64,000 bases of DNA, from assembly GCF_014646355.1 (NCBI RefSeq), contig NZ_BMNH01000002.1, forward strand, positions 234,069 through 298,068, written 5' to 3'. This document shows, piece by piece, positions 3,506 through 61,149 of the stretch. This DNA is from Nonomuraea cavernae. GTDB taxonomy: Bacteria > Actinomycetota > Actinomycetes > Streptosporangiales > Streptosporangiaceae. The stretch's first letter is position 1, and the number at the start of each line of letters is the position of its first letter. A program made the position numbers and the translations under genes. The notes beneath the pieces are model-generated. The model saw only the letters and a list, made by a program, of their open reading frames with translations, was not told the origin of the DNA and made no database searches.

Positions 3506-4735
3506 GTGAGTGTCGCGCTCGGAACCACCCGCCCACTACCGGTTCGCACCACCCCCGTAGGTGACCCGGGTGACCTGCTGGCGTCCCTGCCGAGGTCCGC
3601 GCCCTACGCGTGGATCAGGCACGGCGAGGGGCTCGTGGGCTGGGGAGAGGCCGCCCGTGTCGCGGTGCCTCCCGGCCCCCACCGGTTCGCCTGGGCCCGC
3701 GAGTGGCTCGCGGACATCCTGGGCGAGGCCCACGTCGACGACGCCGTCAACACTCCCGGCTCCGGTCCCGTCGCCTTCGGCAGTTTCACCTTCGACGAGA
3801 GTTCTCCCGGCTCCGTGCTCACCGTCCCGCAGGCGATCCTCGCCCGCCGCGGCGGCCGCGCCTGGCTCACCACCATCGGTGACACGCCCCTGGAGACCTT
3901 CACCCCGATCCGCGATCCCGGCCACATCAGCTACGGCGACGGCAGCCTGACCGCTCCCGAGTGGGAGCACGTGGTGGCCCGCGCCGCCGCGCGCATCCGC
4001 GACGGCGAGCTGGAGAAGGTCGTCCTCGCCCGCGACCTGCTCGCCACGGCCGAGCACCCCATCGACATCCGCCTGCTCCTCACCCGGCTGGCGCACCGCT
4101 ACCCCGACTGCTACACGTTCTCCGTCGCCGGTCTCGTCGGCGCCACCCCCGAGCTGCTCATCCGCCGCACCGGCCAGGAGATCGAGTCGCTCGTCCTGGC
4201 CGGCACCACCCCGCGCGGCAGCAGCGCCGCCGACGACCTCGCCCGGGGCGCGGCCCTGTTCGCCTCCGAGAAGGACCGGCACGAGCACGAGTGCGCCATC
4301 GCCTCCGTGCGCCAGACCCTGGCGCCGCTCTGCGCCTCCCTGCACACCCCCGACGAGCCCGAGCTGCTGGTCCTGCCCAACGTCCAGCACCTGGCCAGCC
4401 ACGTCGTCGGCCGCCTGGCCGACGGGGCCTCCGTCCTCGACGTCGTCGCCGCCATGCATCCCACGGCCGCCGTCGGCGGCACCCCCACCGCCACCGCCAT
4501 CGACGTCATCCGCGAGCTCGAGGGCATGGACCGCGCCGGCTACGCCGGGCCCGTCGGCTGGATCGACGCCCACGGCGACGGCGAGTGGGGCATCGCGCTG
4601 CGTTCCGGCCTGATCAGCGGCAGACGCGCCCGGCTGTTCGCCGGCGGCGGCATCATGGGCAACTCCGACCCGGCGTCCGAGCTGGCCGAGGCCCAGGCGA
4701 AGTTCCGGGTCATGCAGTACGCGCTCGAAGGCTGA
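3506..4735 (+). CDS. menF: Isochorismate synthase (menaquinone pathway)
   Basis: Converts chorismate to isochorismate, the first committed step of classical menaquinone synthesis. The 409-residue protein has the chorismate-binding fold. KVVLARDLLATAEHP, LVLAGTTPRGSSAADD, HPTAAVGGTPTATA and GYAGPVGWIDAHGDGEWGIALRSG are its conserved catalytic and Mg-binding blocks. The frame is open from 3374, but a GTG at 3506 lies 7 nt after a TAGAGT -10 hexamer, so translation is probably leaderless from there. An isochorismate synthase can also feed siderophores, but no DhbA/B/E genes are near while menD, menC and menE lie 12 kb downstream. Its last codons and stop are tandemly repeated. Confidence 0.87.
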   Translation: MSVALGTTRPLPVRTTPVGDPGDLLASLPRSAPYAWIRHGEGLVGWGEAARVAVPPGPHRFAWAREWLADILGEAHVDDAVNTPGSGPVAFGSFTFDESSPGSVLTVPQAILARRGGRAWLTTIGDTPLETFTPIRDPGHISYGDGSLTAPEWEHVVARAAARIRDGELEKVVLARDLLATAEHPIDIRLLLTRLAHRYPDCYTFSVAGLVGATPELLIRRTGQEIESLVLAGTTPRGSSAADDLARGAALFASEKDRHEHECAIASVRQTLAPLCASLHTPDEPELLVLPNVQHLASHVVGRLADGASVLDVVAAMHPTAAVGGTPTATAIDVIRELEGMDRAGYAGPVGWIDAHGDGEWGIALRSGLISGRRARLFAGGGIMGNSDPASELAEAQAKFRVMQYALEG

Positions 4736-4765
4736 CCCCGCGAAGGCTGACCCCGCGAAGGCTGA
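4726..4765. repeat. 15-bp tandem repeat over the menF stop codon
   Basis: The unit CGAAGGCTGACCCCG occurs at 4726-4740 and 4741-4755, then as a 10-bp partial copy at 4756-4765. Each copy carries TGA, and because the period is 15 bp all three stops (4733, 4748, 4763) are in the menF frame. Confidence 0.95.
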
Positions 4766-4774
4766 AGCCGCCGG

Positions 4775-5401
4775 TCACACGGGCTCGGGCACATGGATGT
4801 CGGCGGCGACCACGACCGTGGCCCGGCCTGAGGTCAGGGTCGCCACCCAGTCCGCGAAGGCGCCGAGCTCGGCGTCGGCGACCGCGACCGAGAAGTCCAC
4901 GGCCTGGCCGTAGCCGACGTCGTGGACGGGGTGACGGGAGGCGCGCAGGTCGTTCTCCACCCGGCCGGCCTGGTCGTGGGCCACCGAGACGCGCACCAGC
5001 TTGGCCGGGACCATCCGCACCGGGTCGGCCCGGTCCAGGGTCTCGGTCACCGCCGAGCCGTAGGCCCGCACCAGGCCGCCCGCTCCGAGCAGGGTGCCGC
5101 CGAAGTAGCGGGTGACCACCGCCACCACATCGTCGTACCCCCTGCCCAGCAGGGCCTGGACCATCGGCGTGCCGGCGGTGCCGCCCGGCTCGCCGTCGTC
5201 GTCGCCCTTCCGCAGGCGCTGCCCGATCAGGTAGGCCGTGCAGTTGTGGGTGGCGCCCGGATGCAGGCGGCGGCGCTCGGCGATGAACGCCGCCGCCTCC
5301 TCGACGGTCCGGGCGGGCGCCACCGCGCAGATGAAACGTGACCGCCGCGCCTCCGTCTCGTGCTCGACGCTGGTGGTGAGGGTGAGGAACGGGGCGGCCA
5401 T
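4775..5401 (-). CDS. YigZ/IMPACT family protein
   Basis: A 208-residue member of the widespread YigZ/IMPACT (UPF0029) family, homologous to the eukaryotic GCN1-binding protein IMPACT. Its exact bacterial role is not settled; a ribosome or translation link is suggested for the family. The N-terminal domain has the signature EARRSRFICAVAPARTVEEAAAFI, GATHNCTAYLIG, DDDGEPGGTAGTPMVQALLGRGYDDVVAVVTRYFGGTLLGAGGLVRAYG, which is the diagnostic UPF0029 core. A smaller ferredoxin-like C-terminal domain follows. The ATG lies 7 nt after TAGCTT, so the message is probably leaderless. It is divergent from the epoxide hydrolase gene. Confidence 0.9.
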   Translation of the reverse strand: MAAPFLTLTTSVEHETEARRSRFICAVAPARTVEEAAAFIAERRRLHPGATHNCTAYLIGQRLRKGDDDGEPGGTAGTPMVQALLGRGYDDVVAVVTRYFGGTLLGAGGLVRAYGSAVTETLDRADPVRMVPAKLVRVSVAHDQAGRVENDLRASRHPVHDVGYGQAVDFSVAVADAELGAFADWVATLTSGRATVVVAADIHVPEPV

Positions 5402-5408
5402 GCCTCAC

Positions 5409-5436
5409 AAGCTACCGCCTTTACATCGTAGATCAA
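5409..5436 (-). promoter_or_regulatory. Promoter of the yigZ-like gene
   Basis: Reading leftward, TTGATC (5436-5431) is followed after 16 nt by TAGCTT (5414-5409), which ends 7 nt before the ATG at 5401. The spacing fits a housekeeping sigma factor and a leaderless start. Confidence 0.5.
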
Positions 5437-5499
5437 CACTGGGGGGCTACGCGATCGCCCGCGCCGCACAGCGCCTCAGGCGCCGGTCTCGGAACCGGT

Positions 5500-5539
5500 T
5501 TGCCCGTACGAAACGTATGCCGTACGGTACAGCGTACCG
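5500..5539 (+). promoter_or_regulatory. Promoter with palindromic operator before the epoxide hydrolase
   Basis: TTGCCC (5500-5505), a 17-nt spacer and TACGGT (5523-5528) form a promoter. The inverted repeat CGGTAC-AGC-GTACCG (5525-5539) overlaps the -10 hexamer, and further CGTA/GTAC steps occur between the boxes. That position suits a repressor site; the TetR gene at 6891 is the obvious candidate regulator, by proximity only. Confidence 0.5.
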
Positions 5540-5562: not shown

Positions 5563-6690
5563 TTGACTGCGAACGACATCCGGCCCTTCCGCTTCGAAGC
5601 CTCCCCGAGCGAGCTCGACGACCTGCGGGACCGGCTCGACCGGGTGCGCTGGCCGGACGAGGTGCCCGGCCTCGGCTGGCGCCACGGCGTCCCGCTCGCC
5701 CATCTCAAGGAGCTGGTCCACCACTGGCGCACCGGCTACGACTGGCACCGCGCTTACGCCGAGCTCGACCGGTACGACCAGTTCGTCACCGAGATCGACG
5801 GCCAGAGCATCCACTTCCTGCACGTCCGCTCCGCTCGCCGGGACGCGCTGCCGCTGCTCATCACGCACGGCTGGCCCAGCTCCCCCGTCGAGTACCTCGA
5901 CGTGATCGGCCCGCTCAGCCAGGACTTCCATCTGGTCATCCCGTCGCTGCCCGGCTACGGCCTGTCCGGCCCCACCCGCGAGTTCGGCTGGGGCTCGACC
6001 CGCGTCGCCAGAGCCTGGCTGGAGCTGATGACCAGGCTCGGCTACGACCGCTTCGGCACCCAGGGCGGCGACTGGGGCACCTGGATCTCCCGCGAGGTCG
6101 GCGTGCTCGCCCCCGAACGCGTCGTCGGCATGCACGGCAACGGCATCATCTGTTTCCCCATCGGCGCCCCCGGCGAGCTCGACGACCTCTCCGAGGTCGA
6201 ACAGGACCGGATGGCCTTCCGCGAGCGCTACCTCACCGAGCAGTACGGCTACAAGCTCATCCAGTCGGCCCGGCCGCAGACCTTCGCCTACGGGATGGCC
6301 GACTCCCCCGTCGCGCTGCTCGCCTGGTTCGCCGGAGTCTTCCACGAGTGGAGCGACGACGCCGTGGACACCGACCGGCTGCTCACCACCGTCATGCTCT
6401 ACTGGCTCACCAACACCGCCGGCTCGGCCGCCCGCTCCTTCGTCGAGACCCCCGACACCGACCAGGACACCAGCGTCGAGTGGGAGCTCAAACCGGCCAC
6501 CGTGCCCACGTCCATCTCGGTGTTCCCCCAGGACATCCTGCGGCCGATCCGCCGCTTCGCCGAGCGCGACAACAACATCGTCGGCTGGGTGGAGCACGAG
6601 CGCGGCGGCACGTTCGCCGCCCTGGAACAGCCCGCCGCCTTCGTCACCGACGTCCGCGCGTTCTTCACGTCCCTGAAGTCAGCTCCTTGA
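5563..6690 (+). CDS. Epoxide hydrolase family protein lacking the usual catalytic His
   Basis: A 375-residue alpha/beta hydrolase with the N-terminal EHN domain (residues 1-110, FRFEASPSELDDLRDRLDRVRWPDE). The oxyanion motif HGWP and the nucleophile elbow GGDWG (Asp nucleophile) are present. The segment that normally reads RGGHFAALE, whose His completes the triad, reads RGGTFAALEQP (codon ACG). This enzyme may therefore be inactive, or may use a nearby His such as that in WVEHERGG. The TTG at 5563 follows CTGGAGG by 9 nt and is preferred over an upstream ATG at 5500. A TetR regulator follows 200 bp later. The 3' end runs into a 14-bp repeat array. Confidence 0.82.
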   Translation: MTANDIRPFRFEASPSELDDLRDRLDRVRWPDEVPGLGWRHGVPLAHLKELVHHWRTGYDWHRAYAELDRYDQFVTEIDGQSIHFLHVRSARRDALPLLITHGWPSSPVEYLDVIGPLSQDFHLVIPSLPGYGLSGPTREFGWGSTRVARAWLELMTRLGYDRFGTQGGDWGTWISREVGVLAPERVVGMHGNGIICFPIGAPGELDDLSEVEQDRMAFRERYLTEQYGYKLIQSARPQTFAYGMADSPVALLAWFAGVFHEWSDDAVDTDRLLTTVMLYWLTNTAGSAARSFVETPDTDQDTSVEWELKPATVPTSISVFPQDILRPIRRFAERDNNIVGWVEHERGGTFAALEQPAAFVTDVRAFFTSLKSAP

Positions 6691-6802
6691 CGTCAGCTCC
6701 TTGACGTCAGCTCCTTGACGTCAGCTCCTCGACGCCGGGTCCCTGAAGTCACGTCCCTGAAGTCACGTCCCTGAAGTCAGCGCGCTGAGGTCGCCCCGTT
6801 GA
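6663..6802. repeat. 14-bp periodic repeat array carrying stop codons
   Basis: About ten degenerate 14-bp units, each ending in TGA, run from inside the last epoxide hydrolase codons to 6802. The best copies read CGTCAGCTCCTTGA (6691-6704, 6705-6718) and AGTCACGTCCCTGA (6747-6760, 6761-6774). The gene's own stop (6688-6690) is the TGA of the second unit. As 14 is not a multiple of 3, successive TGA codons fall in all three frames. The array fills most of the gap 6691-6890. Confidence 0.93.
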
Positions 6803-10264: not shown

Positions 10265-10444
10265 CGGGATACCTCCAAGGCCGACGGGCTCGCCCCAGGT
10301 TTACCCCAATCAAGTGTCATTTGTATAGACATGCGGACCAGCGCGGGAGATCTCGATCGGGTTGCGCGCCAAGACCCGGCGACGTCCGGATGTCACGTCA
10401 CAGCACTCCGGCAGGGCCGAGGAGCCGCGGGGCCACTGGGTCCC

Positions 10445-10510
10445 GTGACCCGGTTCTCCGGCGCCGAGCTGCTCGGCGTGACCCGGCTATCCGGCGCCGA
10501 GCTGCTCGGC
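10445..10510. repeat. 33-bp tandem duplication over the citE stop codon
   Basis: 10445-10477 and 10478-10510 match at 31 of 33 positions. The CitE-like gene (leftward) stops in the second copy (TAG at 10489-10487); in the first copy the same site reads GAA. The last 7 or so codons have therefore been duplicated in frame, and the stop exists in only one copy. The rest of the gap 10265-10486 shows no gene. Confidence 0.92.
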
Positions 10511-11335
10511 CAGGGCCACGGTGCGCCGGGCCCTGGCGACGATCGGCGCGTCCACGAAGCGCCCGTCGGGCAGGGCGACGACTCCCCTGCCGGCCTTCTC
10601 GGCCTCTTCGGCGGCCTCGACGATCTCGGCGGCCCGGGCCGCCTCCTCGGCCGTGGGGGTGAACGCCCTTTTGATCGCCGGAAGCTGGCGGGGGTGGATC
10701 GCGGTCCGGCCGAACATGCCGAGGCCCCGGCCCGCCAGGCACGAGGCGACGAGCCCCTCCTCGTCCCGCAGGTCCGGGTAGACGGACATGGGCACCGGCG
10801 GCAGGCCCGCGGCGGCCGCGGCGAGCACGACGTCCAGCCTGATCTGGTTCATCGCCGACTCGGCGCTGATCGACAGCTCGGCCGCCAGGTCCTGCTCGCC
10901 CAGCGCCACGCCGCCGACGCTCGGATGCGCGGCGATCTCGGCGACGGCGACGACGCCCGCGGCCGACTCCAGCAACGCGTGCGCGGGGACCCCCAGCCCC
11001 TCCAGCGCGCCGAGGCCCTCGGCGGACTCGACCTTCGGCAGGCGGACCGCGTCGAGGCCCGGCAGCCCGCCGAGCTCGGCCACGTCCGCCAGGCCCCGCG
11101 GCGTGGCCAGGTCGTTGACCCGCACGTGCACCGCCACCCCCTCCCGGTCCGTACGCTCGCGCAGGAAGGCCGCCGCGTTGGCCCGGGCCTCGTCCTTGCG
11201 GGCGGGCACCACGGCGTCCTCCAGGTCGATGATCACCACGTCCGCGCCGGAGCCGACGGCCTTGGCGAACCGCTCGGGCCGGTCGCCGGGAACGTAGAGC
11301 CAGGTGACGGGCACCCGGGCGGCGGTCGCGGTCAT
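10487..11335 (-). CDS. HpcH/HpaI aldolase, CitE-like CoA-ester lyase
   Basis: A 282-residue TIM-barrel lyase of the CitE/citramalyl-CoA/malyl-CoA lyase family, which cleaves a 3-hydroxyacyl-CoA to acetyl-CoA plus an oxo acid. Landmarks are TWLYVPGDRPERFAKAV, DVVIIDLEDAVVPARKDEAR (metal-binding Asp/Glu), VRVNDLATPRGLADV, VRLPKVES and ALGEQDLAAEL. It lacks its own citrate lyase partners, so it is not citrate lyase proper. It overlaps the upstream CaiB-type CoA-transferase by 4 bp (ATGA), so the two likely act in sequence: one activates a dicarboxylate and the other cleaves it. The exact substrate is unknown. Confidence 0.85.
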   Translation of the reverse strand: MTATAARVPVTWLYVPGDRPERFAKAVGSGADVVIIDLEDAVVPARKDEARANAAAFLRERTDREGVAVHVRVNDLATPRGLADVAELGGLPGLDAVRLPKVESAEGLGALEGLGVPAHALLESAAGVVAVAEIAAHPSVGGVALGEQDLAAELSISAESAMNQIRLDVVLAAAAAGLPPVPMSVYPDLRDEEGLVASCLAGRGLGMFGRTAIHPRQLPAIKRAFTPTAEEAARAAEIVEAAEEAEKAGRGVVALPDGRFVDAPIVARARRTVALAEQLGAG

Positions 11336-16654: not shown

Positions 16655-16720
16655 GGCCGCCAGTCTGGCCGGGACGGCGCCCGGCTCGCACCTGAATATC
16701 CCGCCCTGCCCGCCACCCGC

Positions 16721-16791
16721 CAGCCCGCCAGCCCGCCAGCCCGCCAGCCCGCCAGCCCGCCGGGTCGCCGGGTCGCCGGGTCGCCGGGTCG
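16721..16791. repeat. 8-bp tandem repeats just after menD
   Basis: Five copies of CAGCCCGC (16721-16760) are followed by four copies of CCGGGTCG (16760-16791) and a variant copy that reaches the menD stop codon (TGA at 16800-16798, leftward). The array occupies most of the 143-bp gap between menD and the acetyltransferase gene. Confidence 0.93.
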
Positions 16792-16797
16792 CCGGGG

Positions 16798-24600: not shown

Positions 24601-24683
24601 GGGCAGCACCGTACTCAGGGAGGAGGGCGGCATGCCCCTCAGGTGGGATGACGGCGTGCCGCCCCTCGGGGAGGATGGGCTTC

Positions 24684-36938: not shown

Positions 36939-38557
36939 GTGGCGGCCCGCGCGGCGGGCACAGCGGCGGGCACAGCGGCGGGCAGGCTCGCGCTCAGCCG
37001 CCAGCCGCCCTCCCCATCGGGGCCGGCGGTCAGGGTGCCGCCGAGCGCCCGGACCCGTTCGCGCATGCCGGCCAGCCCGCGGCCCGAGGAGGGCAGGCGC
37101 TCGATGGCCGTGGGCGGGCGGCCGTTGCGGATCTCGATGGCCAGCCCCTCGCCGGCGGACGCGAGGGTGACCCGGACCTCGGTGCCGGGTCCGGCGTGTT
37201 TGAGCACGTTGGTGAGGCCTTCCTGGACGATGCGGGCGGCTGAGGCGCGCGCCACGAGCGGCGCCTGGTCGGCGGCCGGATCGAGGTCGAGGTCCACCAG
37301 CAACCCGGCGGCTGCCATCCTCTCGGCGGACTCGCGCACCACGTCGGCGGGGTCGGCGAGCAGGCCCGGCCGGCGTTCGGGGTCGCGCAGCACGTCGAGC
37401 AGGCCGCGCAGGTCCTGCAGCACCTGGTGGCCGGTGTCGCGGATGTCGCCCAGGGCGTCGGCGACGGGCCCCTCCGGCGCGGCGTACCGGGCCGCGCCGG
37501 CCCGCAGCACCATCGCGCCGACGTGGTGGGCGACGATGTCGTGCACCTCGCGGGCGATGCGCTCGCGCTCGGCCAGCTGGTCGGCGCGCACCTGCGCGAC
37601 GGCCAGGCGGGCCGACTCGCCCGCGCGCAGCCGTTCGGCCGCGGCCACGGCCTGCCGGACGCCGAGGTAGCGGCCGATCGCGATGGGCGTGATCACCAGC
37701 GCCATCAGCACCGCCACCCGGAACGGCGTGACCTCGGTGCCGGCGTCGGCCACGACCGCCGTCGCGGTCAGCAGGCAGCCCGCGAGGTAGGCGGCGACGG
37801 TCCAGGTCCAGGACGCCACGCGGAAGGCGAACACGGCGAGCGCGATCAAGGTCAGCACCAGGCAGGTGGTGACCACCTCGGCGAGGTAGCGGTCGGCGGC
37901 GACCAGCAGCGCGCCCTGGAAGAGGAAGACCAGCCCGGGCATCCTCCGGCTCACGCCGAGGGAGAGCCCGGCGAACACGGCGAGCATCCCGGCCAGCCAC
38001 ACCGGCAGCCCGTCACCGTGCCAGTCGGTCCAGGTGCTCAGCACGGCGACGGCCACCCCGCCGCCCGCCAGCAGCACGTCGGGCGTGATGTCGTCGTTCT
38101 CCAGCCGGCCGGCGGGGCCGCGCAGGTAGCCGCCGATCACGGCGGGCAGCAGGGGCACGAGCACGGTGAACAGCCAGTTTTCGGCGGTGAGCGCGATGCC
38201 GGGATCGGCCAGGTTGATCGCGGTGGCTACGGTCGTGGCGGCCAGCGACAGGACGACGGCGCGCCAGGCGCACCGGTGGGCGACCGATCCGACGGCGACG
38301 CAGAGCAGCACCTGGACGGTGTGGGAGGTGAAGGAGCCGACCTGGTCGGTGAAGATCAGGAAGGCCGCGAGGTAGAGGCTCACCGCGAACGGCCACCGCC
38401 TGACGAACCCCATGGGCGCGCCGGCCAGGACGGCCATCGGGACCATCATGAAGGCCGGCAGGTGCTCTTCGCCGCCCGCCTTGCCCGCCAGCAGCAGGTC
38501 GAGCACGACCCCCGAGACCGCCAGCAGGATGTCGAGCGGCACACCACGCCAACGCAT
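36935..38557 (-). CDS. Two-component sensor histidine kinase (HisKA_3 type)
   Basis: A 540-residue membrane kinase. Residues 1-310 contain many hydrophobic helices (about 8-10) with no large extracellular domain, as in DesK/LiaS-like sensors of membrane state. The dimerisation box EREREIAREVHDIVAHHVGAMVLRAGAAR (written QLAERERIAREVHDIVAHHVGAM in the protein) carries the phospho-His. The ATP-binding end has VARASAARIVQEGLTNVLKHAGPGTEVRV (N box) and SGRGLAGMRERVRALGGTL (G box). The C terminus (AAVPAAVPAARAAT) is encoded by 12-bp repeats at 36951-36984. Start at ATG 38557; cognate regulator follows. Confidence 0.88.
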   Translation of the reverse strand: MRWRGVPLDILLAVSGVVLDLLLAGKAGGEEHLPAFMMVPMAVLAGAPMGFVRRWPFAVSLYLAAFLIFTDQVGSFTSHTVQVLLCVAVGSVAHRCAWRAVVLSLAATTVATAINLADPGIALTAENWLFTVLVPLLPAVIGGYLRGPAGRLENDDITPDVLLAGGGVAVAVLSTWTDWHGDGLPVWLAGMLAVFAGLSLGVSRRMPGLVFLFQGALLVAADRYLAEVVTTCLVLTLIALAVFAFRVASWTWTVAAYLAGCLLTATAVVADAGTEVTPFRVAVLMALVITPIAIGRYLGVRQAVAAAERLRAGESARLAVAQVRADQLAERERIAREVHDIVAHHVGAMVLRAGAARYAAPEGPVADALGDIRDTGHQVLQDLRGLLDVLRDPERRPGLLADPADVVRESAERMAAAGLLVDLDLDPAADQAPLVARASAARIVQEGLTNVLKHAGPGTEVRVTLASAGEGLAIEIRNGRPPTAIERLPSSGRGLAGMRERVRALGGTLTAGPDGEGGWRLSASLPAAVPAAVPAARAAT

Positions 38558-51158: not shown

Positions 51159-51203
51159 CCGGAGGAGGAATTCCCGGAGAAGGAACGCCCGGAGGAGGAA
51201 TTC
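51159..51203. repeat. 15-bp tandem repeat starting at the amidohydrolase stop
   Basis: CCGGAGGAGGAATTC occurs at 51159-51173 and 51189-51203, with a variant copy (CCGGAGAAGGAACGC) between them. The final copy overlaps the stop codon of the leftward amidohydrolase gene (51204-51202). The array lies in the 86-bp gap before the ABC ATPase gene. Confidence 0.9.
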
Positions 51204-52347
51204 ACAGGCGGTAGACGCGGCGGGCGTTGCCGGAGCCGATCATGTGGGCCACGCGGGCGGCGTCGGCGGTGCTCCACTCACCCGCGTCGAGCCGCGTCTT
51301 GAGCGCCCCGCCCAGCGAACGCCGGAAGAAGAACGCGCCCAGGTGACAGGTCTCGGCCACACCGGCGCAGCCGGACCCGAACAACTGCTTGTGAAACGGC
51401 GCCAGCTCCAGCAGCTCGTCCATCGCCCGCCACGCCCCGGCCGCGCCGCGGGTGAGGGCGGGCCCCACGTCGACGTGCACGTGGGGGTGCACGTCGGCGA
51501 GGTGCGCGGCCTGCCGGTGGTAGGGGTAGCAGTGCAGCAGGACCACCGGCACCCCCATCGGCTGCAGCGCCCTGATGAACCCGGTCAGCCGCGACGGGTC
51601 GGCCAGGTGCGGGCCGGCGCCGCCGGCGCCGAACCCGGCGTGCACCTGCAGCGGCAGCCCGCGTTCCCTGGCCACGTCGACCGCCGTCCAGAGCAGGTGG
51701 CGCAGCAGGATCGGGTCGGTCACCGGCTCCTTGGGCTCGGACAGCCGCCGGTTGGCCGCGGCGAGCACCGAGCCGCGGGCCGGCCGGGACGGGTCGAAGC
51801 CGAGGCCGCAGCGGTGGGCGACGACCGTCTTCATCCCGACGGCACCGACGGCCCGGGCGGTGAGCTCCTCGGCGAGGCTGTCCACGTAGTCGAGGGCGGC
51901 CTCGGCCACTTCCGCCACGTCCTGCTCGATCTGCTCGATCCGGATGATCTCGTCGGCCACGGCGGAGCCGAACCGGCCCAGCTCGGCGGCCGACAATAGC
52001 TCTCCGCTCTCCACCCCGGTGTCGACGAGGAATGTCAGCGCCCCGGCCGCCCCCAGCAACCGCCGGTTGACCTCGTCGGCGCCGAGCTCGGCCCGCCGCG
52101 CCAGGTAGACGGTGGGGGCGACGTGCGGCTCCAGATCGAGCACGGGGGCGCACCAGCGGCGGATCGCGGCGCCGAGCGGGGTGTCGAAGTGGGTGGTGCC
52201 GGGCGGCGCCGGCAGGCCGCCCGTGCTGATCAGCGTCTCGAAGGGGGCCCTGGTCAGGTCGTCGCGGCGCACCCCGTGGCAGTGCTGGTCGACGAGCGGG
52301 GCCGACAGGGCCTCACGCACCGTGTCCGGTAGGTCTACGGGGAGCAT
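51202..52347 (-). CDS. Amidohydrolase family 2 protein
   Basis: A 381-residue metal-dependent TIM-barrel hydrolase or decarboxylase. The first metal motif is VDQHCHGV (HxH), and others are in LPLQVHAGFGAGGAGPHLADP, VVLLHCYPYHRQAAHLADVHPHVHVDVGPALTRGAAGAW and GSGCAGVAETCHLGAFFFRRSL. This pattern fits the amidohydrolase-2 branch related to the N-terminal half of fungal FluG. The substrate is unknown. A relative is sometimes found near glutamine synthetases, but none is here. It is convergent-adjacent to trpEG with 40 bp between. Its stop codon marks the start of a 15-bp repeat. Confidence 0.82.
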   Translation of the reverse strand: MLPVDLPDTVREALSAPLVDQHCHGVRRDDLTRAPFETLISTGGLPAPPGTTHFDTPLGAAIRRWCAPVLDLEPHVAPTVYLARRAELGADEVNRRLLGAAGALTFLVDTGVESGELLSAAELGRFGSAVADEIIRIEQIEQDVAEVAEAALDYVDSLAEELTARAVGAVGMKTVVAHRCGLGFDPSRPARGSVLAAANRRLSEPKEPVTDPILLRHLLWTAVDVARERGLPLQVHAGFGAGGAGPHLADPSRLTGFIRALQPMGVPVVLLHCYPYHRQAAHLADVHPHVHVDVGPALTRGAAGAWRAMDELLELAPFHKQLFGSGCAGVAETCHLGAFFFRRSLGGALKTRLDAGEWSTADAARVAHMIGSGNARRVYRL

Positions 52348-52388: not shown

Positions 52389-54527
52389 TTACCGACGCGA
52401 GAGCCGCAGCACGTTCGCGATGACCTTCGCGCCCGCGCCTCCCTCGGCGGTGAGGATCGACTCGGGGTGGAACTGCACCGCGAAGCGGCGGTTGCGGGTG
52501 TCCTCGATCGCCATCACGTTGCCGTCGGGCGTGAGGGCGGTGGCGGTGAAGCCGACGACGCCGGGCCGCTTGGCGTGCAGCGAGTGGTAGCGGGCCGCGG
52601 TGAACTCGGCGGGCAGCCCGTCGAGCAGCGCGCTGTCGCCGAGCCGCGTCACCTGGCCGCGCTTGCCGTGCTCGGGGTAGTCGAGCAGCTCCAGCGAGCC
52701 GCCCGCCTGCTCGACCATGGCCTGCAGTCCGAGGCAGACGCCGAAGACGGGCAGCTCGCGGGCGTAGATCTGGTCGATCAGCGCCGACATGCCGAAGTCG
52801 GACGGCCAGCCGGGGCCGGGCGAGAGCACCACCAGGTCGGGCCCGACCTCGTCGATCGTCTCGGCCGGGAACCCGTGGCGCAGCGTCACCACCTCGGCGC
52901 CCTCCTGGCGGAAGTAGTCGGCCAGCGTGTTGACGAAGGAGTCCTCGTGGTCGACGAGCAGCACCTTCATGCCCTGGCCGGGCAGCTCGCGGACGGGCTT
53001 GGCGGGCACGGCGTGCGGCTCGTTGACGGCGGCGAGCGCGCCGAGCAGGGCGCTGGCCTTGAGCTCGGTCTCGCGCTCCTCGGCGGCGGGGTCGGAGTCG
53101 AACAGCAGGGTGGCCCCGGCTCTGACGGTGGCGACGCCGTTCCTGATCTGGGCGGTGCGCAGGGTCAGGCCGGTGTTCATGGAGCCGTCGAAGCCGATGA
53201 AGCCGATCGCGCCGCCGTACCACCTGCGGGTGGTGGCCTCGTGGTCCTCGATGAACTGCATGGCCCAGGTCTTGGGCGCGCCGGTGACCGTGACGGCCCA
53301 CATGTGGGTGAGGAAGGCGTCGAGCGCGTCGAACTCGGGGCGCAGCCGGCCCTCGATGTGGTCGACGGTGTGGATCAGGCGGGAGTAGAGCTCGATCTGG
53401 CGCCGGCCGATGACCTGGACGGAGCCGGGCACGCAGATGCGCGACTTGTCGTTGCGGTCGACGTCGGTGCACATGGTCAGCTCCGACTCCTCCTTGACGC
53501 TGGTCAGGAGGGTGCGGATGGCCTCGGCGTCCTCGACCGGGTTGCTGCCGCGGGCGATGGTGCCGGAGATGGGGCAGGTCTCGACGCGGTCGCCGCTGAC
53601 CCGGACGTACATCTCGGGCGAGGCGCCGACCAGGTGCTCGCCCTCGCCGAGGCTGATGATGAACTCGTACGGGGCGGGGTTGCTGTGACGCAGGCCGCGG
53701 TAGAAGGCGGCCGGGTCGGCGCAGGTGGCGTGGAAGACCTGGCCGGGCACGACCTCGAACAGGTCTCCGCGCTTGAACTTCTCCTTGGCGGCGGCGACGA
53801 CCTTGGCGTAGGAGCCCTTGACCGGGTCGGGCGGGATCGCGGCCGGGGCGGCGGGCGGGGCGGTGTCGCCGGAGCGCTCCAGCCCCCGGGTGGTGGCGCC
53901 GTCGACGGTGAACTCGTAGCGGTGCTCCAGGCAGGTCTCGCGCTGCCGGTCGATCACGATGAGCCGGTCGGGCAGGTGCAGCACGAGGTCGCGCTGGTCG
54001 TCGGGCCGGACGAGCTCCTGCCGGATGGGCTCGAACTGGAAGGCCAGGTCGTAGCCGAAGGCGCCGTAGAGGCCGAGATGGGGGTCGTCTCCCCGGAAGG
54101 CGGCGATGACCTCGCGGATCGCGGTGAACACCGTGGGCCGGCGGCTGCGCATCTCCTCGGGCAGCAGGCCCTCCGACTCGGGCACGTGCACCTCGACCCG
54201 GTCGGCGGTGGGCTCCTCGACCGGCTTGCCCGCGGCCAGCAGGCAGGACACGACGGCCGGCAGCACCACCCGGCCGCGCGCGTTGAGCGCCCTGGCGGAG
54301 ATGGTGCGGCCCCGGGCGACCAGCTCCAGGCAGGGGTCGACATAGCCGAAGGCCCATCGGCTGTAGCGGCCGGGATAGTCCATGCCGGAGGAGAACGCGC
54401 CGCCGCGCCTCTCGCCGAGGGCCGTCACGATCTCTTCGAGGGCGTCCTCCGACACCTCGCGCGTCTCGCGCTCGACGCCGATGCCCCCGGCCGTGACGTA
54501 TCCGCTGGTATATCCGCTCGTCTCCAC
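52389..54527 (-). CDS. trpEG: Anthranilate synthase, fused TrpE-TrpG
   Basis: Converts chorismate and glutamine to anthranilate, the first step of tryptophan synthesis. The 712-residue fusion has a TrpE domain (residues 1-500): FEFEPIRQELVRPDD, KFKRGDLFEVVPGQVF, SPEMYVRV, PISGTIARG, DVDRNDKSRICVPGSVQV and VTGAPKTWAMQFIEDHE. The TrpG domain (residues 520-712) has VLLVDHEDSFVNTLADYF, the catalytic Cys in VFGVCLGLQAMVE, and HPESILTAEGGAGAKVI. The fused form is common in actinomycetes. The GTG start at 54527 follows AAGGGG. Upstream lie a leader peptide and attenuator. Confidence 0.95.
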   Translation of the reverse strand: METSGYTSGYVTAGGIGVERETREVSEDALEEIVTALGERRGGAFSSGMDYPGRYSRWAFGYVDPCLELVARGRTISARALNARGRVVLPAVVSCLLAAGKPVEEPTADRVEVHVPESEGLLPEEMRSRRPTVFTAIREVIAAFRGDDPHLGLYGAFGYDLAFQFEPIRQELVRPDDQRDLVLHLPDRLIVIDRQRETCLEHRYEFTVDGATTRGLERSGDTAPPAAPAAIPPDPVKGSYAKVVAAAKEKFKRGDLFEVVPGQVFHATCADPAAFYRGLRHSNPAPYEFIISLGEGEHLVGASPEMYVRVSGDRVETCPISGTIARGSNPVEDAEAIRTLLTSVKEESELTMCTDVDRNDKSRICVPGSVQVIGRRQIELYSRLIHTVDHIEGRLRPEFDALDAFLTHMWAVTVTGAPKTWAMQFIEDHEATTRRWYGGAIGFIGFDGSMNTGLTLRTAQIRNGVATVRAGATLLFDSDPAAEERETELKASALLGALAAVNEPHAVPAKPVRELPGQGMKVLLVDHEDSFVNTLADYFRQEGAEVVTLRHGFPAETIDEVGPDLVVLSPGPGWPSDFGMSALIDQIYARELPVFGVCLGLQAMVEQAGGSLELLDYPEHGKRGQVTRLGDSALLDGLPAEFTAARYHSLHAKRPGVVGFTATALTPDGNVMAIEDTRNRRFAVQFHPESILTAEGGAGAKVIANVLRLSRR

Positions 54528-54539: not shown

Positions 54540-54569
54540 GTCGAATGATGAGCCGTCAAATGATGAGCC
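54540..54569. repeat. 15-bp tandem repeat in the trpEG leader
   Basis: GTCGAATGATGAGCC (54540-54554) and GTCAAATGATGAGCC (54555-54569) differ at one base. They sit between the attenuator and the trpEG ribosome binding site and carry ATGATGAG in both copies. The role is unknown. Confidence 0.9.
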
Positions 54570-54679: not shown

Positions 54680-54686
54680 GCCCACC

Positions 54687-56259: not shown

Positions 56260-57849
56260 ATGCGACGCGTACGGCTCCAGCGTGACCTGCCCGTGCCGAT
56301 GCCCGACGGCGTGATCCTGCTGGCCGACCGCTACGCCCCCGAGGGGGTGGAGCGGCCGCCGACCATCCTGGTCCGCTCGCCATACGGCAGGCGCGGCCTG
56401 TTCGGCTGGATGTACGGCCGGGGGTTCGCGCGGCACGGGTTCCAGGTGGTGATCCAGAGCTGCCGGGGCGGTTTCGGCTCCGGCGGGCGGCTCGACCCGC
56501 TGGGCGACGAACGCGACGACGGCCTGGCCACCCTCGCCTGGCTGCGCGGGCAGCCCTGGTACGGCGGATCGCTGGCCATGTTCGGCCCCTCCTACCTCGG
56601 CTACACCCAGTGGGCCGTGGCGGCCGAGGCCGGTCCCGAGCTGAGGGCGATGGCCACCCAGATCACCGCCTCGCAGTTCAGGGACGCCGCCTACGTGGGC
56701 GGCGCGTTCGCCCTGGAGTCGGTGCTGAGCTGGACCACGCTGACCGACGTCATGTCGCGCCGGTTCGGCGGCACCGCCGTGCTGACCGCGCCCCGGCTGA
56801 CCCGCCGGGCCGTGCTGTCGGGGCGGCCGATGGCGGAGCTGGACCTGGTGTCGGCCGGCCGGCCGCTGCGCTTCTACCAGGACCTGCTGGCCCACCACGC
56901 CGATCCGGCCGCGCCGTACTGGGACAGGCGGGACTTCTCGCCCAGGGTGGGTGAGGTCCACGCGGCGGTCACCATGCTGGGCGGCTGGTACGACGTCTTC
57001 CTGCCGTGGCAGTTGAAGGACTACCTGGCGATGCGGGCCGCCGGGCACCGGCCGTACCTGACGATCGGCCCCTGGTACCACATCGACAGGCGGCACGGGC
57101 GGCCGTCGATGGCCGAGGCGCTGGCCTGGTTCCGGGCCCACCTGATGGGCGACGACTCCGGGCTGCGCGAGCAGCCGGTGCGGCTGTACGTGACGGGAGC
57201 CGAGGAGTGGCGCGACTACCACGACTGGCCGGTGCCGGGCGTGCGGACCCAGCGCTGGCACCTGCGGCCGAGGTTGGGACTGGGCACCGGCGATCCCGTC
57301 GAGTCGGAGCCCGACCGGTTCCGCTACCACCCGGAGCATCCGACGCCGGTGGTCGGCGGGCCGGTGCTGCTGGCCGACTCCCGGCCGCGCGACCAGCGCC
57401 GCCTGGAGGCCCGGCGCGACGTCCTGGTCTACAGCTCTTCCACGCTGGACGCCGACGTGGAGATGATCGGCCCGGTCTCCGCCGAGCTGTTCGTCCGCTC
57501 CAGCACGCCGTACGTGGACGTGGTGGTGCGCCTGTGCGACGTGCACCCGGACGGCAGGTCGTTCAACCTGGCCGAGGGCGTGCGACGGCTCGGCCCCGGC
57601 GACGCCGCCGACGCCGACGGGGTGCGCCGGGTCACGGTGGACCTGTGGCCGGTCGGGCACCGGTTCCGGCGCGGCCACCGGATCCGGGCGCACGTCGCCG
57701 CGGGCGCCTACCCGACGATCGCCCGCAACCCCGGCACCGGGGCTCCGTTCGCCGACGGTGGTCCGATGGTGCCCGCCGACGTCGAGGTCTTCCACTCCCC
57801 CGCCCACCCGTCCGCCGTGCTGCTGCCGCTGTGCGCGCCGCGCGGCTGA
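56260..57849 (+). CDS. CocE/NonD family hydrolase
   Basis: A 529-residue serine hydrolase of the X-Pro dipeptidyl-peptidase/cocaine-esterase family, acting on amide or ester bonds. It begins RDLPVPMPDGVILLADRYAPEG, then VIQSCRGGFGSGG, the nucleophile motif FGPSYLGYTQW (Ser), and Asp/His partners in GWYDVFLPWQ and TIGPWYHID. The C-terminal jelly-roll domain ends about residue 520 (FRRGHRIRAHVAAGAYPTIARNPGTGAPF). No signal peptide. The stop codon overlaps a WYL-type regulator gene, so both are co-transcribed. Confidence 0.87.
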   Translation: MRRVRLQRDLPVPMPDGVILLADRYAPEGVERPPTILVRSPYGRRGLFGWMYGRGFARHGFQVVIQSCRGGFGSGGRLDPLGDERDDGLATLAWLRGQPWYGGSLAMFGPSYLGYTQWAVAAEAGPELRAMATQITASQFRDAAYVGGAFALESVLSWTTLTDVMSRRFGGTAVLTAPRLTRRAVLSGRPMAELDLVSAGRPLRFYQDLLAHHADPAAPYWDRRDFSPRVGEVHAAVTMLGGWYDVFLPWQLKDYLAMRAAGHRPYLTIGPWYHIDRRHGRPSMAEALAWFRAHLMGDDSGLREQPVRLYVTGAEEWRDYHDWPVPGVRTQRWHLRPRLGLGTGDPVESEPDRFRYHPEHPTPVVGGPVLLADSRPRDQRRLEARRDVLVYSSSTLDADVEMIGPVSAELFVRSSTPYVDVVVRLCDVHPDGRSFNLAEGVRRLGPGDAADADGVRRVTVDLWPVGHRFRRGHRIRAHVAAGAYPTIARNPGTGAPFADGGPMVPADVEVFHSPAHPSAVLLPLCAPRG

Positions 57850-58856
57850 TGTCGCTGGTCCTGCTGCTGCAGGGCCGGGGCGGCATGACGGCGGCGGAGC
57901 TGGCCCGGGAGCTGGAGGTGTCGGAACGCACCGTGCACCGCGACGTGCTGGCGCTGGCCGAGGCGGGCGTGCCGGTCTACGCCGACCGGGGACGCGGCGG
58001 CGGCTACCGGCTGCTCGACGGCTACCGGACCCGGCTGACCGGGCTGGACCGGGCCGAGGCCGAGGCGTTGTTCCTGTCGGGGGTGCCCGGGGCGCTGCGC
58101 GAGATGGGGCTGCAGGAGGTGGCGGCGACCGCCCGGCTGAAGGCCGCCGCCGCGCTCTCGCCGGGCCTGCGCGACGCCCCCGCGACGGCCGCGCAGCGCT
58201 TCCACCTCGACGCCCCCGGCTGGTTCGCGGCCGGCGACCCGCCGCCCGCCGCGCTCGCGCCGCTGGCCAGGGCCGTCTGGAAGGACCGCCTGGTCACCGC
58301 CGTCTACAAGGAGCGGGCGCGGACGCTGGAACCGTACGGGCTCGTGCTCAAGGCGGGCGCCTGGTATCTGGCCGCCCGTTCGCGGTCGAGATTCCTGATC
58401 TTCCGGGTGGACCGGTTCGGCCCGGTCGAGGTCGGCGACGCCGGCTTCGACCGGGACACCGGTTTCGACCTGGCCGCGTTCTGGGCCGAGCAGGCGAACT
58501 GGTTCACCCGGTCGCTGCTGCGGACCGAGATCACGCTGCGGCTCACCCCGCGCGGGGTGCGGCTGCTCCGCCACATCGCCGACCCGGCCGCCCTGACCGG
58601 CGCGCTCGGCTCGCTCCAGCCCGACGGCACCGTACGGCTCGCGGTCGAGTCGGACGAGGTGGCCTTCGGGCAGGTGCTGAGGTTCGGCCCGGAGGCCGAG
58701 GTGCTCGCGCCGCCGGAGCTGCGGGCCGCGGTCGCCGAGGCCGCCACCCGCATGTCAGGCCTGTACGGGACCGGTCAGGCCCGCACGGCGGGCTGGCGGT
58801 GGTCGTCCGGGTCGCCAAGCCGGTCGCCGGGCCGGTCGCCGGGGCGGTCGGCTTGA
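57831..58856 (+). CDS. WYL-domain HTH regulator (YafY-like)
   Basis: A 341-residue regulator. The N-terminal HTH_11 is MSLVLLLQGRGGMTAAELARELEVSERTVHRDVLALAEAGVPVYADRGRGGGYRLLDGYRT. The WYL domain (about residues 150-225) has VYKERARTLEPYGLVLKAGAWYLAARSRSRFLIFRVDR, and a WCX-like C-terminal extension follows. The GTG at 57831 gives the family start VRAARLMSLVLLLQ and overlaps the hydrolase gene by 19 nt; ATG 57849 is the alternative. The last residues (SPSRSPGRSPGRSA) are encoded by a 12-bp repeat and look like added sequence. It may control the hydrolase gene. Confidence 0.82.
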   Translation: MRAARLMSLVLLLQGRGGMTAAELARELEVSERTVHRDVLALAEAGVPVYADRGRGGGYRLLDGYRTRLTGLDRAEAEALFLSGVPGALREMGLQEVAATARLKAAAALSPGLRDAPATAAQRFHLDAPGWFAAGDPPPAALAPLARAVWKDRLVTAVYKERARTLEPYGLVLKAGAWYLAARSRSRFLIFRVDRFGPVEVGDAGFDRDTGFDLAAFWAEQANWFTRSLLRTEITLRLTPRGVRLLRHIADPAALTGALGSLQPDGTVRLAVESDEVAFGQVLRFGPEAEVLAPPELRAAVAEAATRMSGLYGTGQARTAGWRWSSGSPSRSPGRSPGRSA

Positions 58857-58896
58857 GGCCTCAACGGTGGTCCGCCGGGCCGACCGGCTCCCGGCC

Positions 58897-59814
58897 TCAT
58901 CGGTAGTCCGCCGGGTCGGGGGCGACGCCCTTGTCCGCGGCGTCCGTGAGGTAGCCGACGTCCGTGAGGTATCTCCACACCTGGGGCCGGCTGCCGTCCA
59001 CGTCGGTGAACCCGTACGCCAGGGCCACCTCCTCGCTGGAGACCGACCGGCCCGACCAGCGCCCCCGGTCGGGGTCGGCGGCGAGGGCGGCGACCGCCCG
59101 GCCGGTGTAGGCGGGGGTCTCGGAGACCGCGAACGCGGCGTCGGCGCCCTTGGCGACCGCCTCCCGCCAGGTGTCCTCGGTGACGCCGAAGTGCTCCAGC
59201 ATCGCCTCGGAGCGCAGGAAACCGGGCGAGACGGCCACCGCGGTGCCGCCGTGCGGGCGCAGCTCGTGGGCCTGGGCGAACGCCAGCCGGTTGACCGCCA
59301 TCTTGGCCAGGTCGTAGACGAGCGACTCGCGGTAGCGGGTGACGTTGAAGTCCCAGGTGCCGTCGGTCACCTCCACGACCAGGCCGTCGCCGCCCTTGAT
59401 CAGCAGCGGCAGCAGGTGGTGGCTGGTGATGATGTGGGTGTCGATGCCCAGCCTGAGCAGCCGCAGCCCCTTGTCCAGATCCTGCTCCCAGATCGGCGTG
59501 TTCCAGCTCCACAGGGAGTCGGCGCCCCAGACGTCGTTGACCAGCACGTCCAGGCGCCCCTGCTCGCTGTCGATCCGCTCGGCCAGCGCCTTGACCTGGT
59601 CGCTCTCCAGATGGTCCACCCGGACCGCGATGCCGGTGCCGCCGGCCGCGGTGACCAGCTCGGCGGTCTCCTCGATCGTCTCGGACCGGTTCATCTCCGA
59701 CCGCCGCTCGCGGGTCGTCCTGCCGGTGCAGTAGACGGTCGCGCCGATCGCGCCCAGCTCGCGTGCTATTCCTCGTCCCGTGCCGCGGGTCGCTCCCGCC
59801 ACCAGTGCAATCAT
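58897..59814 (-). CDS. Short-chain dehydrogenase/reductase
   Basis: A 305-residue Rossmann-fold oxidoreductase. The cofactor motif is LVAGATRGTGRGIARELG (TGxxxGxG form), with VDHLESDQVKAL and NDVWG (variant of NNAG). The catalytic Tyr-x3-Lys is YDLAK in RESLVYDLAKMAVNRL, and GLVVEVTDGTW holds the Ser/Thr position. It matches DHRS1-like actinobacterial SDRs. Its substrate is unknown. It is divergent from the VOC gene across 77 bp that contain the palindrome GACAT-CTC-ATGTC (59839-59851), so one regulator may control both. Confidence 0.87.
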   Translation of the reverse strand: MIALVAGATRGTGRGIARELGAIGATVYCTGRTTRERRSEMNRSETIEETAELVTAAGGTGIAVRVDHLESDQVKALAERIDSEQGRLDVLVNDVWGADSLWSWNTPIWEQDLDKGLRLLRLGIDTHIITSHHLLPLLIKGGDGLVVEVTDGTWDFNVTRYRESLVYDLAKMAVNRLAFAQAHELRPHGGTAVAVSPGFLRSEAMLEHFGVTEDTWREAVAKGADAAFAVSETPAYTGRAVAALAADPDRGRWSGRSVSSEEVALAYGFTDVDGSRPQVWRYLTDVGYLTDAADKGVAPDPADYR

Positions 59815-59891
59815 GCGGCGAGCCTGCCCGGTAAAGAGGACATCTCATGTCATGTTTTTTGGCTGAACCCTGTGATAAGTACGTAGTTACT

Positions 59892-60440
59892 ATGAACAGC
59901 GAATTCGAGCTTCGCGGGGTCAACCACATCGCTCTGGTCTGCTCCGACATGAAGCAGACCGTCGACTTCTACTCCGGCGTCCTGGGCATGCCGCTGATCA
60001 AGACGATCGAGCTGCCGATGGGCTGGGGCCAGCACTTCTTCTTCGACTGCGGCGGCGGCAACGCGCTGGCGTTCTTCTGGTTCCCCGACGCGCCGGAGGG
60101 CGTGCCGGGCGTCTCCGCGCCGAAGAACCTGCCCGACCGGGGCGAGCTGGTGTCGGCCGTCGGATCGATGAACCACATCGCCTTCGACGTGCCGCCCGAG
60201 CGGATCGAGGAGTACCGCGACCGGCTGCTCGCCAAGGGCATCGACGTGGGCGTGCTGCTCAACCACGACGACAGCGAGTTCGGGGTGGCGCCGAAGATGC
60301 ACGACGGGGTGTTCGTCCGGTCCATCTACTTCAAGGACCCCGACGGCGTGCTGGTGGAGTTCGCCGCCTGGACCCGCCCTGTCGGGCAGCCGGGCGACGT
60401 GCGGCACGAGCCGAGGACCGCCGCCGACAGGACCGTCTGA
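59892..60440 (+). CDS. VOC-family (glyoxalase/dioxygenase-like) protein
   Basis: A 182-residue vicinal-oxygen-chelate protein. Two beta-alpha-beta-beta-beta units are seen: GVNHIALVCSDMKQTVDFYSGVLGMPLIKTIELP (metal His in NHIAL) and SMNHIAFDVPPERIEEYRDRLLAKGIDV (second His), ending SIYFKDPDGVLVEFAAW (Glu ligand). The metal ligands for a dioxygenase or isomerase are in place. The reaction is unknown. The start at ATG 59892 is preferred. Its stop overlaps the next gene's ATG (TGATG), so both are one operon. Confidence 0.85.
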   Translation: MNSEFELRGVNHIALVCSDMKQTVDFYSGVLGMPLIKTIELPMGWGQHFFFDCGGGNALAFFWFPDAPEGVPGVSAPKNLPDRGELVSAVGSMNHIAFDVPPERIEEYRDRLLAKGIDVGVLLNHDDSEFGVAPKMHDGVFVRSIYFKDPDGVLVEFAAWTRPVGQPGDVRHEPRTAADRTV

Positions 60441-61072
60441 TGCCGAGGCTGCGGCAGGTGCCGCGCGAGGAGATGACCGACCCGGTGGTCACCTTCTTCA
60501 ACGACCGGCTGCTCGAGCCCGGCCGACAGGGCACGGCGACCGGCTCGCCCGGCGACTGGTGGACGGTCTTCGCGCTCGACCCGGCGATCTTCCGGCACTG
60601 CGTCAAGGGCTTCCAGCTCTACCGCGAGTCCAGCCTCGACCCGGTGCTGCGCGAGCTCGGCCAGACCAGGGCCGGATGGGCGCGGCAGAGCCAGTTCGTC
60701 TACTCCCAGCACTGCAAGCAGCTACGGGCCCTCGGACTGCCCGAGGAGAAGATCAAGGCGATCGCCCACTGGGCGGTCAGTGACCTGTTCGGCGAGCTGG
60801 AACGGGCCGTGCTCGCCTACACCGACGCGCTCGTGCTCGACGGCGGCCGGGTGCACGACGAGGTGTTCGCGGTGCTCAAGCGGCACCTGCCGGACGAGCA
60901 GATCCTGGAGCTGACCTACATCACCTGCCTGTACGAGATGCACGCCACGATGGCGCGGGCCCTGCGGCTGGAGTTCGACGACCGCCCCGACCCGATCGTG
61001 GAGGTGCCGGCGCCCGACGGATACGGCACCCGCGACATCTCCGAGGACCTGACCGGCCGCCCGGCGACCTGA
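60440..61072 (+). CDS. Carboxymuconolactone-decarboxylase-like protein
   Basis: A 210-residue all-helical protein of the AhpD/CMD fold. The core runs SLDPVLRELGQTRAGWARQSQFVYSQHCKQLRALGLPEEKIKAIAHWAVSDLFGELERAVLAYTDAL and VHDEVFAVLKRHLPDEQILELTYITCLYEMHATMARAL. The AhpD-type CxxC is absent; single Cys in SQHC and TCLY remain, so a peroxidase role is not supported. It overlaps the VOC gene, which hints at a shared aromatic or lactone catabolic step. The substrate is unknown. Confidence 0.8.
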   Translation: MPRLRQVPREEMTDPVVTFFNDRLLEPGRQGTATGSPGDWWTVFALDPAIFRHCVKGFQLYRESSLDPVLRELGQTRAGWARQSQFVYSQHCKQLRALGLPEEKIKAIAHWAVSDLFGELERAVLAYTDALVLDGGRVHDEVFAVLKRHLPDEQILELTYITCLYEMHATMARALRLEFDDRPDPIVEVPAPDGYGTRDISEDLTGRPAT

Positions 61073-61077
61073 CGCGC

Positions 61078-61149
61078 CAGGGGCCGCGGAGTCGAGGTGA
61101 CCCGATCCGGGCCCGGCTCGTCAGGGGCGCCCGGAGTCGAGGTGGCCGG
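61078..61149. repeat. Direct repeat over the DUF6285 gene end
   Basis: A segment at 61121-61149 covering the last codons and stop of the DUF6285 gene recurs at 61078-61104, about 42 bp further on in the gene's reading direction, beyond the stop. The shared core is GGAGTCGAGGTG with similar flanks. It resembles the end-of-gene duplications seen elsewhere in the window. Confidence 0.75.

What the first reader, a model, noticed from the sequence alone, without database searches (positions are those of the whole stretch)
4726..61149. Tandem repeats that repeatedly coincide with stop codons
Six genes end in a short tandem repeat that contains or begins at their stop codon: menF (15 bp), epoxide hydrolase (14 bp), citE (33 bp), menD (8 bp, adjoining), amidohydrolase (15 bp) and DUF6285 (about 42 bp apart). 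In several the last codons plus the stop were copied downstream. The histidine kinase and WYL regulator also end in 12-bp coding repeats. In menF the extra stops are in frame; in the epoxide hydrolase array they cover all three frames. This looks like a local process acting at gene 3' ends: replication slippage tolerated only there, or selection for back-up stop codons.
Basis: seen in the sequence. Interest (0 to 1): 0.75.

Follow-up and report, generated by a model that had tools for sequence, protein, structure and literature searches.

The report
Stop-swallowing tandem repeats after genes
In this actinomycete, short head-to-tail DNA repeats cluster just after genes and often swallow the stop codon, likely because a chance duplication there, unlike elsewhere in a gene, leaves the protein unchanged.

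Summary
In 1.63 Mb of the 8.12-Mb Nonomuraea-type genome, tandem repeats (unit 7-60 bp) cover 4.1% of non-coding bases within 60 nt of stop codons, 0.84% near starts and 0.33% inside genes. Eighty related loci repeat this; shuffles give 0 against 128. Units differ between arrays and are species-specific; relatives show single copies.

When an array reaches into a gene, the stop lies in the FIRST copy in 49 of 53 cases (20.6 expected). Units are multiples of three in 185 of 187 arrays inside genes, but in 19 of 53 spanning a stop.

So random short tandem duplications are likely tolerated where protein and start signals stay unchanged. Back-up stops (no in-frame bias), terminator hairpins and a strong local mutagenic process are not supported. 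Caveat: the stop/start contrast is confined to gaps under 300 nt. Supply is lineage-dependent: none outside genes in sampled stretches of a same-class genome, E. coli or one Streptomyces plasmid. How the first duplication arises is open.

The parts
3506..4735 (+). menF-like isochorismate synthase gene; its end KFRVMQYALEG-stop is shared by 18 of 18 congeners compared
4726..4765 (+). 15-bp x 2.7 array starting in the last codons of menF; stop in the first copy; in frame
   Evidence: this unit seen in none of the 18 congeners compared
5563..6690 (+). epoxide hydrolase gene; most of the 10 relatives compared end about 3 residues earlier, none has an array there
6670..6792 (+). 14-bp array spanning the stop; TGA triplets fall in rotating frames
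10444..10510 (-). 33-bp x 2.0 array spanning the stop of a citE/HpcH-type lyase (gene 10487-11335)
16716..16796 (-). 8-bp arrays beginning 1 nt after the menD stop (gene 16798-18456)
51159..51203 (-). three imperfect 15-bp copies starting inside the amidohydrolase stop (gene 51202-52347)
61074..61144 (-). imperfect 26-nt copy of the DUF6285 gene end including its stop, 45 nt downstream (gene 61121-61495)
36951..36984 (-). 12-bp x 2.8 in-frame repeat inside a gene, 13 nt before its stop (gene 36935-38542)
58810..58850 (+). 12-bp in-frame repeat at the end of the WYL-regulator gene (57831-58856)
58837..58919 (.). imperfect 36-bp repeat covering the convergent stops of the WYL regulator and an SDR gene

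Best explanation
The arrays lie mostly just downstream of genes and, where one reaches into a gene, the stop codon sits in its first copy in 49 of 53 cases; they are likely random short tandem duplications that survive only where the protein and its start signals stay unchanged. Step 1 (inferred): a 7-60 bp stretch is duplicated in place, anywhere on the chromosome. Step 2 (selection inferred from shown patterns): inside genes almost only units of 3n length remain; close to starts most are removed; downstream of a stop, or across a stop when the unit contains it, the first copy still encodes the old protein and any unit length is allowed. Step 3 (inferred): once two copies exist, slippage or unequal exchange makes more copies, and arrays come and go faster than species. 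The epoxide hydrolase end looks like a 14-bp duplication in the last codons that shifted frame and stopped inside its own second copy (inferred). Some births show no microhomology, so pure slippage is unlikely to be the only source; end joining of staggered breaks is a candidate (untested).
For: Density near stops against near starts: 4.14 and 0.84% in the own genome, 0.33% inside genes; bootstrap ratio 5.0, 95% interval 2.8-10.5, and TRF gives 7.15, 1.90 and 1.55%; 3.67, 0.62 and 0.18% in 80 related loci; G010 3.81 and 0.47%; N. gerenzanensis 4.02 and 0.88%, S. clavuligerus pSCL4 8.65 and 1.34%. Within the same tandem gaps 62 repeats lie in the stop half and 21 in the start half (P = 7.5e-6). 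Stop in the first unit 49 of 53, expected 20.6; with N. gerenzanensis added 53 of 58. Start-spanning arrays 9 against 53. 3n units: 185 of 187 inside genes, 81 of 176 not wholly inside genes (counts; test). No shared unit in the own sample: 6 of 2775 array pairs share a 12-mer, three of these being neighbouring arrays. Single-copy relatives: N. roseoviolacea has an 18-bp and N. guangzhouensis a 3 x 20-bp insertion relative to a congener, with both flanks alignable and the last residues kept. menF: this genome and 18 of 18 congeners end in KFRVMQYALEG; arrays at the stop in 2 of the 19, with different units. Repeats inside genes are spread along them: 20, 20, 20, 16, 18, 16, 14, 14, 23, 26 by decile, n = 187.
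Against: The stop/start contrast holds only in short gaps: within 60 nt, 3.12 against 0.77% in tandem gaps under 300 nt (49 and 10 repeats by half), but 1.37 against 1.42% in longer ones (13 and 11); the model does not predict why stop-proximal density is lower in long gaps. Without matching for gap, density far from any start falls with distance from a stop (4.7, 5.4, 3.4, 1.5, 1.9%) and is 0.9% in divergent gaps, so some attraction to gene ends is possible; in convergent gaps of 200-1000 nt it is 5.1% within 75 nt of a stop and 3.1% further away (14 and 13 repeats). In G010 divergent gaps are not poor (2.69%). Four of 53 stop-spanning arrays break the first-copy rule. The mirror case at starts is too small to test: start in the last copy in 6 of 10, 3.8 expected, and my start calls are weaker than stops (31 and 39 of 41). 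Repeats inside genes rise a little in the last decile (26, mean 18.7). The supply is unexplained: a same-class genome with Ku and NucS has no non-coding repeat in 400 kb. Microhomology gives no single birth mechanism: of 22 perfect two-copy cases 8 have none, but 7 have 4 or more bases against 3% expected. Confidence was lowered from 0.77 to 0.72.
Confidence: 0.72

Rival explanations
1. Gene 3' ends are a mutational hot zone: transcription termination, stalled or colliding polymerases or R-loops downstream of stops make short tandem duplications there more often.
For: Density falls beyond about 150 nt from a stop even far from starts; convergent gaps are richest (0.83 per kb, against 0.37 tandem and 0.16 divergent; 6.6% near stops in short convergent gaps).
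Against: In tandem gaps of 300-1000 nt there is no clear difference (2.0% stop-proximal, 1.6% middle, 8 and 7 repeats, interval of the difference -1.4 to 2.3; with S. clavuligerus added 2.6 and 1.65%, interval -0.9 to 2.9); in divergent gaps of that length the middle is richer than near starts (2.75 against 1.56%, 5 and 9 repeats); repeats inside genes are nearly even along them; arrays are no more hairpin-prone than other 3' flanks (P = 0.87).
Confidence: 0.19
2. Selection for back-up stop codons: copies are kept because they add further in-frame stops after a leaky TGA.
For: menF copies give extra in-frame TGA codons.
Against: Stop-spanning unit lengths are 19/15/19 by remainder mod 3; arrays are species-specific; a systematic study finds no evidence of selection for additional stops in eubacteria (PMC6764699, abstract read).
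Confidence: 0.03
3. The arrays are functional 3' elements such as terminators, RNA-stability elements or protein-binding sites.
For: Position downstream of genes; some units contain inverted repeats by eye (C2:369491 and the citE unit).
Against: Units are unrelated, absent from the orthologues compared, and no more structured than other 3' flanks.
Confidence: 0.04
4. Assembly or gene-calling artefact.
For: The genome is a draft of 81 contigs and genes were called with my own script.
Against: Same pattern in a one-contig congener (G010), in 80 loci of other assemblies and with TRF; the caller found 39 of 41 annotated stops in a Streptomyces stretch that was part of its training set.
Confidence: 0.01

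Closest known systems
Tandem repeats of archaeal Borg elements (PMC9879509; found passages and section 2.1.3 read)
   Same: Units nearly all unique, recently and independently formed; unit lengths divisible by three inside ORFs but mostly not between them; [quoted passage not shown]
   Different: Here on chromosomes of actinomycetes; mostly few, imperfect copies (median 2.75); no A enrichment; position relative to the stop is quantified here and gives the first-copy rule.
Mycobacterial MIRU/VNTR and other intergenic minisatellites (recalled; only search listings seen)
   Same: Short tandem arrays between genes; as I recall, some overlap stop and start codons.
   Different: MIRU are, as I recall, a dispersed sequence family; here units do not recur.
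TAACTGA direct repeats of Beggiatoaceae (PMC4679880, abstract read)
   Same: Short intergenic direct repeats in many copies per genome.
   Different: One recurring heptamer, mostly just upstream of start codons; here unrelated units, mostly after stops.
Fail-safe additional stop codons (PMC6764699, abstract read)
   Same: Extra stops downstream of the gene end.
   Different: No frame bias here; copies look like by-products.
Over-represented close direct repeats in prokaryotic intergenic DNA (PMC4060949, passages read)
   Same: Some repeats of longer units are commoner outside than inside genes.
   Different: In the passages seen, that survey does not resolve position relative to stop codons.

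Membership tests
Tolerated intergenic minisatellites (Borg-type tandem repeats) | Unique units, not a dispersed family | tested here: met
   own sample: 6 of 2775 array pairs share a 12-mer, three of them neighbouring arrays
Tolerated intergenic minisatellites (Borg-type tandem repeats) | 3n unit lengths inside genes, not outside | tested here: met
   185 of 187 against 81 of 176
Tolerated intergenic minisatellites (Borg-type tandem repeats) | Recent, independent formation | tested here: met
   single-copy congeners in the clean cases, different units at orthologous menF ends
Borg tandem repeats proper | A-enriched, perfect, 3 or more copies over at least 50 nt | tested here: not met
   A 13.2% against 16.3% in controls; median 2.75 copies
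MIRU-type dispersed repeats | One recurring unit family (definition recalled) | tested here: not met
Fail-safe stop codons | Excess of in-frame extra stops | tested here: not met
   19/15/19 mod 3, P = 0.74
Intrinsic terminators | Stronger hairpins than other 3' flanks | tested here: not met
   144 arrays, median MFE per nt -0.329 against -0.324 in controls, P = 0.87; T-runs not examined
Slipped-strand products | Microhomology at the first duplication | tested here: inconclusive
   8 of 22 with none, 7 of 22 with 4 or more
VNTR loci | Copy number varies between strains of one species | not testable with these tools
   one genome per species held in the genome sets used

The most novel reading that the evidence does not exclude
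Some actinomycete lineages run an uncharacterised, homology-independent machine that copies about 10-35 bp in place; it is active around the zone where transcription ends, and by copying last codons plus stop it continually rewrites gene ends, occasionally adding new C-terminal residues as in the epoxide hydrolase.
Probability: 0.15. Interest if true: 0.72.

Novelty: new member of a known kind. Interest (0 to 1): 0.42.

Why it matters
The stop codon acts as a base-sharp switch: the same kind of duplication that must be 3n upstream of it becomes free of frame across it, provided the first copy keeps the stop. If the sieve reading holds, this gives a cheap read-out of short-duplication supply and of constraint at gene ends in any genome, and would explain why repeats 'coincide' with stops without a dedicated function. 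It also flags that the supply differs strongly between the lineages sampled (many in Streptosporangiaceae and S. clavuligerus pSCL4; none outside genes in the sampled stretches of a same-class genome, E. coli and another Streptomyces plasmid), for an unknown reason.

Tried and rejected
A Ku (NHEJ) or NucS (repair) explanation of lineage differences: Ku in 26 of 27 and NucS in 27 of 27 genomes searched, the repeat-free G025 having both (a 28th handle, E. coli, was not held and not searched), so neither discriminates. A genus-level absence in Sphaerisporangium, suggested by 0 non-coding repeats in 16.9 kb, was refuted by 7 in 24 kb of other loci. A palindrome motif in the epoxide hydrolase array (CTGANNTCAG: 3 matches, 0.57 expected) led nowhere. 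Hairpin drive: nothing. Script faults: one search failed and was redone; one search read minus-strand loci unturned and was superseded; the blast part used unsupported gap costs and wrongly reported 0, redone; the distance table had an indexing error, redone; one search failed, redone. In one search, 53 of 144 queries had a spanning hit, but many at low identity are clearly not orthologous; I use only a few clean cases, chosen by eye, and claim no count of gains. In one search, arrays near the menF stop were found in 8 of 80 loci (threshold 12, -80 to +160 nt), 1 of them spanning the stop. The pool of 53 stop-spanning arrays is own genome, 80 loci and G010; N. gerenzanensis (4 of 5 with the stop in the first copy) and S. 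clavuligerus pSCL4 (3 of 3) were counted apart. Literature: ten searches (one search was rejected for a term and replaced). I saw no description of the first-copy rule in their listings; the library holds open-licence papers only and listings show abstracts' beginnings, so this is not proof of absence.
Full report
What was checked. The window lies at C2:234069-298068 of an 8.12-Mb, 81-contig genome, same genus as G010, whose contig length equals that of Nonomuraea jabiensis. I fetched 1.63 Mb of it (contigs 1 and 2 whole, 240 kb of contig 3), called genes with a codon-model script (in a test stretch it recovered 39 of 41 annotated stops and 31 of 41 starts) and searched for tandem repeats of period 7-60 with two or more copies.

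Is it more than chance? Yes. Non-coding DNA of the own genome, G010 and 80 related loci (417 kb) holds 128 repeats at the working threshold, and three dinucleotide shuffles hold 0 each. In the own sample, repeats cover 4.14% of non-coding bases within 60 nt of a stop, 0.84% within 60 nt of a start and 0.33% inside genes. Among flanks with strong gene calls it is 6.89 against 1.50%, TRF gives 7.15 against 1.90%, and the bootstrap ratio is 5.0 (2.8-10.5). An independent set of 80 loci (1.57 Mb) gives 3.67, 0.62 and 0.18%. The window itself is only mildly above average (5 of 64 stops against 49 of 1525).

What they are. Units differ from array to array (own sample: 6 of 2775 pairs share a 12-mer, three of these neighbouring arrays). 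They are young: menF ends in the same KFRVMQYALEG in this genome and 18 of 18 congeners, but only this genome and N. jabiensis have arrays at the stop, with unrelated units. In N. guangzhouensis four 20-bp copies of a gene end stand where a congener has one; in N. roseoviolacea two 18-bp copies stand where N. montanisoli has one, with flanks and last residues kept. In that last pair the congener's stop overlaps the next gene's called ATG; after duplication the old stop is in the first copy and a GTG in the last copy could serve as start (inferred).

The rule. Of 53 arrays that span a stop, 49 hold it in the first copy, against 20.6 expected if position were random; adding N. gerenzanensis, 53 of 58. 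Frame: 185 of 187 arrays inside genes have 3n units, 81 of 176 others, and stop-spanning ones split 19/15/19. Start-spanning arrays number 9 against 53; the mirror rule, start in the last copy, holds in 6 of 10 with 3.8 expected, too few to test. This is what purifying selection on random tandem duplications predicts: the copy that is translated must remain intact.

Local process or tolerance? Unmatched, density falls beyond about 150 nt from a stop even away from starts, and divergent gaps are poor (not in G010). In tandem gaps of 300-1000 nt there is no clear difference (2.0, 1.6 and 1.8% near stop, middle and near start; 8, 7 and 7 repeats), and a mild one in convergent gaps (5.1 against 3.1%; 14 and 13 repeats). 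Repeats inside genes are nearly even along gene length. Over all tandem gaps 62 repeats lie in the stop half and 21 in the start half, but this contrast sits in gaps under 300 nt (49 and 10; longer gaps 13 and 11). I read this as avoidance of the bases close to starts, which make up much of short gaps, plus freedom after stops; why stop-proximal density is lower in long gaps is unexplained, and a modest local excess is not excluded.

Other functions. No in-frame bias, no extra hairpin potential (P = 0.87) and no A enrichment. For back-up stops the literature is also negative in eubacteria (PMC6764699, abstract).

Birth and lineage. Of 22 perfect two-copy duplications with units of 14 bp or more, 8 have no microhomology and 7 have 4 or more bases, against 3% in simulated random duplications: a mixture, with slippage unlikely to explain all. 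N. gerenzanensis (4.02 against 0.88%) and S. clavuligerus pSCL4 (8.65 against 1.34%) show the pattern; 200 kb of E. coli K-12 hold no repeat at all, and 150 kb of a Streptomyces NBC_00841 plasmid and 400 kb of same-class G025 hold none outside genes. Ku and NucS do not discriminate.

Closest known. The tandem repeats of Borg elements (PMC9879509) share unique, young, frame-respecting units and may begin in the end of an ORF. The present case is the same kind of thing on actinomycete chromosomes, with the stop-codon rule measured.

Noticed in passing
window 1604-1641: Perfect 19-bp x 2 repeat about 97 nt downstream of a glycosyltransferase gene, not touching a stop.
   Followed up: partly
window 54540-54569: 15-bp x 2 AT-richer direct repeat (GTCAAATGATGAGCC) just upstream of the minus-strand gene 52389-54527 and the plus-strand gene at 54775; may be a regulator site rather than a neutral array.
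   Followed up: no
window 24614-24660: Imperfect 24-bp x 2 repeat overlapping the start of the minus-strand gene 24010-24633 and reaching towards the plus-strand gene at 24675; a counter-example to the stop rule.
   Followed up: no
L212 (N. deserti), menF end: The last 15 nt of menF including the stop recur 29 nt downstream with unrelated sequence between, a spaced rather than tandem copy, like DUF6285 in the window.
   Followed up: partly
G000 C1:338505-338605, C1:636807-636899, C2:407564-407659: Three regular 16-bp arrays of about six copies after genes.
   Followed up: no
L275-L277 against L272-L274: Two Streptomyces megaplasmids differ from 26 non-coding repeats in 150 kb (pSCL4) to none in 150 kb (NBC_00841); cause unknown.
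   Followed up: partly
L210 18567-18587 against L203 18420-18423: A duplication over an overlapping stop/start (ATGA) leaves the stop in the first copy and offers a GTG start in the last copy (start read by eye).
   Followed up: partly
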